Assembly (NCBI GenBank): GCA_035498035.1 | Contig: DATKAN010000038.1 | Coordinates: 1-64,000 of the forward strand | Direction of reading: 5' to 3' | Source of the DNA: Nitrospiria bacterium | GTDB taxonomy: Bacteria > Nitrospirota > Nitrospiria > JACQBZ01 | DNA: 64,000 nucleotides | Part shown: one piece after another, positions 42,541 through 44,521 of the stretch | Layout: each line of letters starts with the position of its first letter | Position numbering within the stretch: the stretch's first letter is position 1 | Made by a program: the position numbers and the translations under genes | The notes under the pieces: generated by a model | Told to the model about the DNA's origin: nothing | What the model saw: the letters and a program-made list of their open reading frames with translations, nothing else | Database searches by the model: none

Positions 42541-43203
42541 TTACTTCTTTCGCCGCCAGAGCATCAAAAGCTCTTTTCCCTCGCGACGGGGAATGGACCT
42601 GGGAACGCGATCCAAGACCAATTTAAAGCGGTGGCTGAATCGGTCCAGCAGCTCATCGCGCGTCGCGCCGAACGGCGGGCCGGTCTCGGGCCGTATCGCA
42701 TAGAAAACGCCGAGCAGGATGCCGTCCGGCTTCAAGAGGCTCGCGGCCGCTTCGACATAGCGGTCCCGATGATCCGGATCGATCGCGCAGAAAAAAGTAT
42801 TTTCAAAAATAAGATCGTAGGGTCCGCGCAGACGGGCGGGCAGATGAAGAAAGTCGGCCTGTTCGAACCGCGCATTCTTTAAACCTTCCAAATCGGCCAG
42901 CCGCGTCGCTTCCTCGACGGCTTTTTTAACGACATCCAGACCGATCACATCGAACCCTGCGGAAGCCAGCGCGCGCGCGTCATGCCCGTGCCCGCAACCC
43001 GGGACGAGCGCGCGGCCGTATCGGAACGGCACGGCCCGACCCGACCCCGAATCGTTTTTCAGGAAATCGACCAGGCCGGGCGACGCCCCGCCCTGATCCC
43101 AGCCGGTGTCGCCGTTCCTGTACAGCTCCGCCCAGAACGCGGCGTCGACTTCCTGTTCCTTCCGCCCGATGTGGGGATAATGTTTTCGTCCCGGTCTCGT
43201 CAT
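42541..43203 (-). CDS. Class I SAM-dependent methyltransferase, TPMT-like
   Basis: Thiopurine-S-methyltransferase-like enzyme of 220 residues. Landmarks are FWAELYRNGDTGWDQGGASPGLVDFL near the N-terminus, the SAM-binding GRALVPGCGHGHDA, LDVVKKAVEEA and DLIFENTFFCAI. Relatives methylate thiols, tellurite/selenite or halides. An intrinsic terminator lies 19 bp before its start, and there is no convincing ribosome binding site, so it probably uses its own promoter or depends on read-through of the upstream RNA gene. Confidence 0.85.
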   Translation of the reverse strand: MTRPGRKHYPHIGRKEQEVDAAFWAELYRNGDTGWDQGGASPGLVDFLKNDSGSGRAVPFRYGRALVPGCGHGHDARALASAGFDVIGLDVVKKAVEEATRLADLEGLKNARFEQADFLHLPARLRGPYDLIFENTFFCAIDPDHRDRYVEAAASLLKPDGILLGVFYAIRPETGPPFGATRDELLDRFSHRFKLVLDRVPRSIPRREGKELLMLWRRKK

Positions 43204-43221
43204 GGTTTATAAATTAAAAAA

Positions 43222-43275
43222 ATAAACCCGGAAGCGGATTCTTCATCCTAAAGCGGCTACGACGTCCGCGCTTCC
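43222..43275 (-). terminator. Intrinsic terminator of the free-standing RNA
   Basis: On the minus strand AAACCCGGAAGCG pairs with CGCTTCCGGGTTT across a 30-nt loop, followed by ATTTTTTT. The stem is 13 bp and the T-run is long, so termination of minus-strand transcripts should be efficient. Confidence 0.75.
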
Positions 43276-43599
43276 GGGTTTTGGTGGCCCTGGGATTGCA
43301 TCCCAGGCTTCACCTTCGAGAAGGGTATGGCGCTTAGGACGCGGCCACCTCACTCGCCGTAGGGTTAATACAACTGCCCACTGGACCACCTCCTTCCTCG
43401 GAACGGGGGCCCTCCCACGCGTCAGGATCGAACCCCCTTACGCGCGGGCCCCGCCCCTATGCGGCGTTCCACCGCGCCGGGCCGGACCCAGGTCCGCCCG
43501 TCCCATCGAACCGGCCGCCGCTGCCGGCCCGACGAGCCGCCTCCCGCATACCGGGAGACTCGGGGAGGAGTGACTCCCCTGAAAACCCGAACAGACATC
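43222..43599 (-). ncRNA. Unidentified structured RNA, about 380 nt, with its own promoter and terminator
   Basis: The 450-bp gap between metF and the methyltransferase holds a minus-strand unit bounded by a good promoter (43606-43634) and a strong terminator. It is dense in hairpins: GGGGAG/CTCCCC, CTCCCG/CGGGAG, GGCCGG/CCGGCC, GGACC/GGTCC, GCGG/CCGC and CCTGGGAT/ATCCCAGG, with a long-range GGTGGCC/GGCCACC pairing. A perfect AAGGAGGT occurs about two-thirds along, followed at suitable distance by a GTG-started 15-codon frame (MGSCINPTASEVAAS). A 48-codon frame, also GTG-started, runs from 43389 to 43243. I could not match it to RNase P, tmRNA, SRP or 6S RNA. Confidence 0.65.
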
Positions 43600-43605
43600 C
43601 CATAA

Positions 43606-43634
43606 ATCTTAGCAGCAGTTAGGGCATATTGCAA
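43606..43634 (-). promoter_or_regulatory. Promoter of the free-standing RNA
   Basis: On the minus strand, TTGCAA (43629-43634), a 17-bp spacer and TAAGAT (43606-43611). The predicted transcription start is near 43599. It lies just after the metF stop codon. Confidence 0.65.
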
Positions 43635-43654: not shown

Positions 43655-44521
43655 CTACCGTCCCAGCAGCCGGGAGAGGATCATCTCGGTCGAGCGGGAT
43701 TTGTTGAGCGTGTAGAAGTGAATTCCGGGCGCGCCCTTGTCCAGCAGATCGCGGGCCTGGCGAAAGGTCCAGTCGATACCGTAGCGGATCACGTACTCCG
43801 CGTCGGTCTGACGGGGTTCCAACGTCCGGACGATCTCGGCCGGGACGCGCGCGCCGCACATCGCGGCGAATTTATGAAGCTGGCCGTAGTTCGTGACCGG
43901 CATCAGGCCGGGCAGGACCGGAAGCGTGATTCCCAAGGCCCGGACCCGCTCGACGAACCGAAAATAGTCTTCGTTGTTGAAGAACAGCTGGGTCGTTATA
44001 AAATCCGCCCCGGCCTCCGCCTTCTCCTTGAGATGACGCAGGTCCTCCTCCATGGTGGGGGCCTCGGGATGTTTTTCGGGATAGCCGGCGACGCCGACGC
44101 AGAAACCGTCCATCTTCCGGATGTGGCGGACCAGGTCGACCGCGTACCGGTATTCCCGTCGGTTTTCGGGAGGAAGATGGCCGTCCTTGGGCGGATCGCC
44201 CCGGAGCGCCATGATGTTCTCGATCCCGAGGACGCGGATCTTCTCCACGATCGCCTCGATCTCGTTTCGGGTGTGGGCGATGCAGGTGAGATGGGCGACG
44301 GTCGTGAGCCCCAGCTCGTTCTGGATCATGCCGGCCGTCTCGATCGTCCGGTCGCGGCTCGATCCCCCGGCCCCGTAGGTGAGCGTGACGAAGGAGGGCG
44401 CGAGCCCCTTCAGGTCCCGCACGGTGGACTTGAACTGGGTCATCCCCTCCGGCGTTTTCGGAAGGAAGAACTCGAAGGAAAAAACCGGACGCCGGTCGTT
44501 AAAACAGTCCCGAACTTTCAT
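43655..44521 (-). CDS. metF: Methylenetetrahydrofolate reductase
   Basis: FAD-dependent TIM-barrel enzyme that reduces 5,10-methylene-THF to 5-methyl-THF for methionine synthesis and the Wood-Ljungdahl methyl branch. The N-terminal FSFEFFLPKTPEG, the THF/FAD-binding TLTYGAGGSSRD, NIMALRGDPPKD and TQLFFNNEDYFRF motifs are typical. The 288 residues match MetF. It lies on its own; upstream is a 129-bp region without an assigned gene. Confidence 0.94.
   Translation of the reverse strand: MKVRDCFNDRRPVFSFEFFLPKTPEGMTQFKSTVRDLKGLAPSFVTLTYGAGGSSRDRTIETAGMIQNELGLTTVAHLTCIAHTRNEIEAIVEKIRVLGIENIMALRGDPPKDGHLPPENRREYRYAVDLVRHIRKMDGFCVGVAGYPEKHPEAPTMEEDLRHLKEKAEAGADFITTQLFFNNEDYFRFVERVRALGITLPVLPGLMPVTNYGQLHKFAAMCGARVPAEIVRTLEPRQTDAEYVIRYGIDWTFRQARDLLDKGAPGIHFYTLNKSRSTEMILSRLLGR

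What the first reader, a model, noticed from the sequence alone, without database searches (positions are those of the whole stretch)
43222..43634. Free-standing, highly structured RNA gene of about 380 nt with embedded mini-frames
The 450-bp gap has a TTGCAA-17-TAAGAT promoter and a 13-bp terminator on the minus strand and between them at least six strong hairpins. It also contains AAGGAGGT with a 15-codon GTG-started frame (MGSCINPTASEVAAS) and an overlapping 48-codon frame. I could not assign RNase P, tmRNA, SRP or 6S RNA from their conserved motifs. It may be a new structured RNA, a dual-function RNA or a divergent member of a known class.
Basis: partly seen in the sequence, partly recalled or inferred. 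Interest (0 to 1): 0.75.

Follow-up and report, generated by a model that had tools for sequence, protein, structure and literature searches.

The report
Widespread ribosome-engaging mini-mRNA
The gap holds a small stand-alone RNA gene, related to the little-studied mycobacterial RNA Ms_IGR-5, that carries a tiny reading frame with an unusually strong ribosome-landing site at its start and a second landing-site-like sequence at a fixed distance before its stop, a design kept in at least five bacterial phyla.

Summary
43634-43216 (minus strand) is a conserved free-standing RNA gene: promoter, covarying 5' domain (18 of 29 pairs with two-sided changes, 0/500 shuffles), extended Shine-Dalgarno (SD), 15-codon frame, terminator. 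It is a divergent homologue of Rfam RF02471 (Ms_IGR-5; 34.3 bits, cut-off 45). Three same-class relatives pass the cut-off, so the 'Actinobacteria sRNA' label is too narrow. A sequence model finds the element in genomes related to Actinobacteria, Nitrospirae, Acidobacteria, Zixibacteria and Leptospirales records, not in 200 genomes of the phylum of a Rhodobacteraceae record. The frame is translated: in 95 unique actinobacterial copies, fetched without asking for start, frame or stop, it is 12 codons in 92. The peptide is not what is kept. GAGGUG is kept letter for letter (GAG and GUG never synonymous), and a stop follows exactly 9 nt later in 147 of 150 rows. GAGGUG is SD-like and sits at initiation-like distance from the last sense codon. 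Best explanation: a mini-mRNA that loads a ribosome through near-complete pairing with the 16S tail and holds it at its stop. The hold is inferred. Ribosome footprints on Ms_IGR-5 in two mycobacteria are published.

The parts
43606..43634 (-). promoter: TTGCAA (43634-43629), 17 nt, TAAGAT (43611-43606)
   Evidence: sequence; hexamers and spacing kept in 5 of 7 family copies, GTGCAA-17-TATA.T in 6 of 6 copies of another family; TTGCAA also lies in an inverted repeat just behind metF
43463..43582 (-). 5' structured domain with five covarying helices; found only in the window's branch of the family
   Evidence: 18 of 29 pairs with two-sided changes; 94.2% cells paired, covariation score 0.558 vs shuffled 0.265, 0/500; no Rfam match up to E 1
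43402..43461 (-). about 60-nt stretch absent from the aligned relatives (insertion, approximate bounds)
   Evidence: alignment of L001-L018
43383..43398 (-). extended Shine-Dalgarno AGGAAGGAGGTGGTCC, near-complete complement of the 16S 3' tail
   Evidence: -29.4 kcal/mol with GGAUCACCUCCUUUCU, strongest of 25,592 20-mers sampled on both strands of the window
43334..43381 (-). 15-codon frame, GTG start, TAA stop, MGSCINPTASEVAAS
   Evidence: kept frame with interchangeable starts and stops and a 3-nt in-frame length change in relatives
43346..43351 (-). GAGGTG, internal SD-like hexamer; stop codon exactly 9 nt after it
   Evidence: 147 of 150 rows; in R1 hits 49/50, 18/22, 6/6, 30/30 and 9/9 by phylum
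43343..43349 (-). 5' strand of long-range helix GGTGGCC, inside the frame
   Evidence: last pair is G-C, C-G or A-U across relatives; actinobacterial equivalent beats 0/500 shuffles
43283..43289 (-). 3' strand of long-range helix GGCCACC, just before the terminator
43289..43307 (-). hairpin CCTGGGAT-GCA-ATCCCAGG
   Evidence: sequence and minimum-energy fold; not in the alignment consensus
43216..43280 (-). intrinsic terminator AACCCGGAAGCG...CGCTTCCGGGTT plus U-run
   Evidence: sequence; stem in 16 of 17 relatives, the 17th was cut short

Best explanation
A free-standing mini-mRNA of the Ms_IGR-5 kind. An SD that can pair with nearly the whole single-stranded 16S 3' tail loads a 30S subunit. 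The ribosome translates 10-17 codons. When the stop codon enters the A site, the invariant GAGGUG, 8 nt (from GAGG) before the last sense codon in the P site, can pair with the freed anti-SD and hold the terminating or post-termination ribosome on the RNA. The RNA thus acts by engaging ribosomes, as a sponge or sensor of 30S availability or termination. The peptide is a by-product. In the window's branch and in many Actinobacteria the ribosome at the stop also opens a helix between the last codons and the stretch before the terminator, so ribosome occupancy would change the RNA's fold. Shown computationally: homology, gene boundaries, frame conservation, nucleotide-level invariance of GAGGUG, fixed stop distance, helices. 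Inferred: the hold at the stop, what it controls, and the trans role.
For: Frame: 92 of 95 unique actinobacterial copies have a 12-codon frame, all 95 with TTG/ATG/GTG start (55/32/8), stops 89 TAG/4 TGA/2 TAA, though the search pattern fixed none of these. Stop at +9 after GAGGTG in 147 of 150 rows; the other offsets 0-39 have at most 7 each. In model hits where GAGGTG was not demanded: 49/50, 18/22, 6/6, 30/30, 9/9. The codons beside it do change amino acid (EVA, EVT, EVP, EVV, EVS) while GAG and GUG never change even synonymously. TAG 89/95 against 65 of 269 long open frames in actinobacterial loci. SD pairing -29.4 kcal/mol, strongest in the window; tail GGATCACCTCCTTTCT read in two actinobacterial genomes (L299, L300). 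Neighbours differ: metF/TPMT, pabC/THAP4-like, Maf, argB-type kinase, M24 peptidase, Fapy glycosylase/GNAT; in L042, L075 and L056 the next gene is on the other strand, so it is not a leader. Ms_IGR-5 carries ribosome reads in M. abscessus and M. smegmatis (PMC4974804, passages) and is an expressed sRNA in S. lividans and S. avermitilis (PMC8079986, PMC8780764, passages).
Against: No direct evidence of a pause at the stop codon or of any target. The published ribosome reads could reflect complexes other than translation, as PMC4974804 itself discusses. GAGGUG also lies in a helix in some clades, so part of its conservation may come from pairing. Model R1 was built only from copies that contain GTGAGGTGGC, which favours finding intact ones. 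In the window's own branch the peptide is fairly conserved (NPTA[SC]EVAAS). One relative, L014, has lost the stop. 11 of 49 actinobacterial and 4 of 30 Zixibacteria-group hits have only CTG/ATT/ATC/ATA as possible in-frame start, and one has none.
Confidence: 0.45

Rival explanations
1. A conserved small peptide is the product: the RNA is a tiny mRNA and the E-V-containing peptide acts on a cellular target.
For: Frame kept with synonymous changes in the window's branch (N AAC/AAT, A GCG/GCA, A GCC/GCA/GCG); actinobacterial consensus RT[RC]EVA[AV][RS].
Against: Across phyla only E and V are constant, and these two codons are the ones that show no synonymous change; the first 4-9 residues are unconstrained. 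Conserved T (GGAC) and A (GC) positions coincide with possible pairing to the SD and to the 3' strand.
Confidence: 0.17
2. A base-pairing regulatory sRNA (or 16S-tail sponge) in which translation is incidental or serves only to protect or switch the RNA.
For: Strong 16S-tail complementarity; free-standing position, terminator, strong structure.
Against: A pure antisense or sponge RNA does not need a start codon, a kept frame and a stop at fixed distance; all three are kept.
Confidence: 0.2
3. A leader peptide/attenuator controlling the gene behind the terminator by ribosome stalling at the stop codon.
For: Leader-peptide look: strong SD, short frame, helix with the coding end, terminator; in the window a TPMT-type methyltransferase starts about 20 nt after the terminator on the same strand.
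Against: The gene behind is not conserved and is on the opposite strand in L042, L075 and L056. No alternative anti-terminator pairing was found; the 3' strand does not overlap the terminator arm.
Confidence: 0.08
4. A bar-minigene-like element: SD pairing at the stop slows termination and causes peptidyl-tRNA drop-off, draining a tRNA or ribosomes under some condition.
For: Short frame plus SD-like sequence beside the stop, mostly TAG; minigene idea recalled and present in the literature listing (listing only).
Against: Frames are 10-17 codons, longer than classical bar minigenes (recalled); the last codon varies (Arg, Ser, Thr, Cys, Gly, Pro), so no single tRNA is targeted.
Confidence: 0.1

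Closest known systems
Ms_IGR-5 (Rfam RF02471), Actinobacteria sRNA
   Same: Homologous core: extended SD, short frame ending in E-V-x-x-x-stop, downstream hairpins, terminator. M. colombiense locus L042 scores 179.4 bits and carries the same parts.
   Different: Window copy scores 34.3 bits, below the 45-bit cut-off, and has an extra covarying 5' domain. The three full-text papers held that name Ms_IGR-5 describe no peptide frame or stop-linked signal in the passages read. The structure used by Rfam does not contain the long-range helix.
bar-type minigenes and leader peptides
   Same: Very short translated frame with strong initiation; likely ribosome-state readout.
   Different: Free-standing gene with no conserved downstream gene; a second SD-like signal at fixed distance before the stop.
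Internal SD signals at programmed sites (prfB, dnaX; recalled)
   Same: SD-like sequence acting on an elongating or terminating ribosome near a stop codon.
   Different: prfB and dnaX stimulate frameshifting at other spacings; here the spacing matches ordinary initiation geometry and nothing suggests a frameshift.
Extended SD-aSD initiation (S. aureus; PMC13009471, passages read)
   Same: Pairing of the SD beyond the core with the 16S tail.
   Different: There it is a general initiation mode of long mRNAs; here it is a fixed part of one small RNA.

Membership tests
Ms_IGR-5 (RF02471) | score at or above the Rfam gathering cut-off (45 bits) | tested here: not met
   34.3 bits, E 3.5e-6, full model length; met by same-class relatives L029 54.6, L030 45.8, L155 49.3 and Zixibacteria-group L054 55.9, L269 58.0
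Ms_IGR-5 (RF02471) | core AAGGAGGUGGUCC ... GUGAGGUGGC | tested here: met
   (54.5 bits with model R1)
Ms_IGR-5 (RF02471) | terminator hairpin closing the transcript | tested here: met
Ms_IGR-5 (RF02471) | actinobacterial host | tested here: not met
   same-class relatives are titled Nitrospirae and Candidatus Manganitrophaceae
Ms_IGR-5 (RF02471) | expressed as a small RNA | not testable with these tools
   no transcript data for this organism
tmRNA (RF00023) | tRNA-like domain and covariance score | tested here: not met
   no window hit at gathering, none by ARAGORN; genome's tmRNA is on another contig
cis-acting leader/attenuator | conserved downstream gene on the same strand | tested here: not met
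RNase P, SRP, 6S RNA | Rfam score at gathering | tested here: not met
   only a tRNA in the whole window

The most novel reading that the evidence does not exclude
A multi-phylum class of free-standing mini-mRNAs whose purpose is the ribosome itself: an SD complementary to the whole 16S tail loads it, and an invariant SD-like hexamer at fixed distance before a mostly UAG stop holds it at termination, making the RNA a ribosome-parking or termination-sensing device with a dispensable peptide.
Probability: 0.35. Interest if true: 0.87.

Novelty: new variant of a known kind. Interest (0 to 1): 0.72.

Why it matters
An RNA catalogued only as 'Actinobacteria sRNA', with no function stated in the passages found here, would become a translated, ribosome-engaging RNA present in at least five phyla, including mycobacteria. 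The stop-linked SD signal gives a single-nucleotide, directly testable prediction about how SD pairing acts at termination.

Tried and rejected
Rejected: tmRNA, RNase P, SRP and 6S; the 48-codon frame (2-244 codons in 18 copies); attenuator; plasmid copies of the window RNA's 3' half (no match) and phage copies of an M. colombiense copy (no match).

False hits set aside: L041 and L175 (pattern chance), L298, L260-L263, and 21 weak Nitrospirota hits (0 of 21 have the anatomy). L237 lacks GAGGTG. L257 and the tandem L244/L249 were scored wrongly by the scan; they count as having the pattern.

Dropped before counts: L041, L175, L014, duplicates and rows scoring under 20; 204 unique left. The helix test used the 96 of 204 in which a GCGA/GCAATCC anchor was found; its regex fixes the last four 3' letters, so only pairs 5-10 are informative. 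In one search the longest-complement test did not separate observed from shuffled well outside Actinobacteria and Nitrospirota; the long-range helix is not claimed elsewhere. The gene picking by length was unreliable in high-GC loci and was redone with codon-position GC for ten actinobacterial loci.

The window genome's assembly holds no 16S rRNA at this search, so the 16S tail was taken as recalled and checked in L299 and L300.

'Same phylum as' a handle is the tool's grouping.

Literature searches. No held paper contains the peptide strings or the SD string tried. Most subscription papers, including the original Ms_IGR-5 description (recalled, not seen), are not held.

Full report
Observation. 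The gap between a metF-type MTHFR gene (43655-44521, minus; PF02219) and a TPMT-type methyltransferase (42541-43203, minus; PF05724) holds, on the minus strand, a promoter-like pair TTGCAA-17-TAAGAT, a long structured stretch, AGGAAGGAGGTGGTCC, a GTG-started 15-codon frame ending in TAA, and a strong terminator. The fold is more stable than all 100 dinucleotide shuffles (z -3.68). The promoter hexamers and spacing recur in 5 of 7 same-genus/family copies, and a TGCAA/TATA version with the same spacing recurs in 6 of 6 copies of another family.

Homologues in the class. A DNA search of 58 genomes gave matches in 19, one of which (G030) is only 22 nt. The 18 others align over the SD, the frame and the terminator. 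The 5' part (43582-43463) is a real RNA domain in this branch: RNAalifold predicts 29 pairs in five helices, 18 with two-sided changes. On the same structure 94.2% of cells pair (shuffled 78.4%) and the covariation score is 0.558 against 0.265, reached by 0 of 500 shuffles and not approached by slid versions (0.074-0.194). It has no Rfam match up to E 1. The window copy carries about 60 nt before the SD that the others lack.

What family. Rfam gives RF02471 Ms_IGR-5 over the full model length, 34.3 bits against a cut-off of 45, E 3.5e-6. An M. colombiense copy scores 179.4 bits, and three Nitrospirota copies (L029, L030, L155) and two Zixibacteria-group copies (L054, L269) pass the cut-off. 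The window RNA is therefore a divergent homologue. It is not a formal RF02471 member, and the label 'Actinobacteria' is too narrow.

Distribution. Besides Actinobacteria it hit records titled Nitrospirae, Candidatus Manganitrophaceae, Bryobacterales, Blastocatellia, Zixibacteria and Leptospirales. A sequence-only covariance model R1 was run on 295 genomes of the window's phylum: 9 matches of 48.7 bits or more, then a gap to 19.1 bits. It found 78 of 198 genomes in the phylum of the mycobacterial handle (E<=0.01), 22 of 149 in that of the Bryobacterales handle, 6 of 149 in that of the Leptospirales handle, 34 of 98 in that of the Zixibacteria handle (E<=0.001), and 1 of 200, a partial SD-only match, in the phylum of the Rhodobacteraceae handle. 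Checked for the anatomy GGAGG[TC]G ... GAGGTG-N9-stop: 9 of 9, 49 of 50 examined, 18 of 22, 6 of 6, 30 of 30 examined, 0 of 1, and 0 of 21 weak Nitrospirota hits. Every strong hit is single per genome in the listings.

The frame is translated. The actinobacterial pattern hits were fetched without any requirement on start, frame or stop. Of 111 loci, 95 are unique over the core. All 95 have an in-frame ATG, GTG or TTG at the right place (32, 8, 55); 92 have exactly 12 codons; stops are TAG 89, TGA 4, TAA 2. In the window's branch the frame survives a 3-nt length change, synonymous substitutions and stop swaps. Outside evidence: ribosome reads on Ms_IGR-5 homologues in M. abscessus and M. smegmatis (PMC4974804, passages), with that paper's own caution that non-coding RNAs can also show such reads.

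What is conserved is RNA, not peptide. In 150 rows a stop lies exactly 9 nt after GAGGTG in 147 (121 TAG, 18 TGA, 8 TAA). No other offset from 0 to 39 exceeds 7. Two of the three exceptions are chance matches (L041, L175) and one is a lost stop (L014). In the divergent hits the residues after E-V are A, T, P, V or S and then almost anything, yet GAG and GTG are never replaced by synonymous codons, also in the AT-richer copies. TAG is 65 of 269 stops of long open frames in the actinobacterial loci against 89 of 95 here. R1 was trained on copies with GTGAGGTGGC, so some bias to intact copies remains.

Geometry. AGGAAGGAGGUGGUCC pairs with the 16S tail at -29.4 kcal/mol, the strongest of 25,592 sampled 20-mers of the window. 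GAGGUG is complementary to CACCUC in the same tail. From GAGG to the last sense codon there are 8 nt and to the stop codon 11 nt; the distances from GGAGG to the start codon in this family are 7-14, mostly 7 or 10-12. So the second signal is placed as an initiation signal would be, but relative to the codon in the P site at termination. That this holds the ribosome is an inference from established SD behaviour.

Long-range helix. In the window's branch GGUGGC[CGA] in the frame pairs with [GCU]GCCACC just before the terminator; the last pair is G-C in 10, C-G in 5, A-U in 1 and mismatched in 1 of 17. In 96 of 204 unique copies with a recognisable anchor, 905 of 960 cells pair against a shuffle mean of 847.5 and maximum of 867, with the excess at pairs 7-10. 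Many actinobacterial copies could also form a local hairpin around the stop (seen by eye, not tested). The long-range helix was not found in the other phyla.

Free-standing. Neighbours differ between hosts (metF/TPMT, aminotransferase IV/THAP4-like, Maf, amino-acid kinase, M24 peptidase, Fapy glycosylase/GNAT), and the next gene is on the opposite strand in L042, L075 and L056. A leader role is therefore unlikely.

Verdict. Identity and anatomy are firm (about 0.95). The ribosome-loading and ribosome-holding mechanism is the best single reading (0.45). It would be settled by one look at existing profiling data and a synonymous GAGGUG mutant.

Noticed in passing
window 43461-43402: About 60 nt GC-rich stretch between the 5' domain and the SD, absent from the aligned relatives; origin not determined.
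   Followed up: partly
L006 and L018, inside the RNA after the frame: Both carry an inverted repeat CTGGGGACAGATTTCAAATCTGTCCCC-like insertion at the same loop, so the RNA tolerates insertions there; L018 has a second insertion in the terminator stem.
   Followed up: no
G002:C81:19491-19556: A separate copy of only the terminator part (query 362-426) elsewhere in a same-genus genome.
   Followed up: no
L244 and L249: Acidobacteria-group copies with two GAGGTG elements in tandem in one frame (EVSYRTREVAAT and EVNYRTREVVAT); only the second is followed by a stop at +9.
   Followed up: no
L207, L216, L220, L227, L238-L241, L278, L280, L288, L291: Copies whose only possible in-frame starts are CTG, ATT or ATC, suggesting initiation driven by the extended SD at weak start codons.
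   Followed up: no
L014: A Manganitrophaceae-family copy in which the stop codon is replaced by CGA.
   Followed up: no
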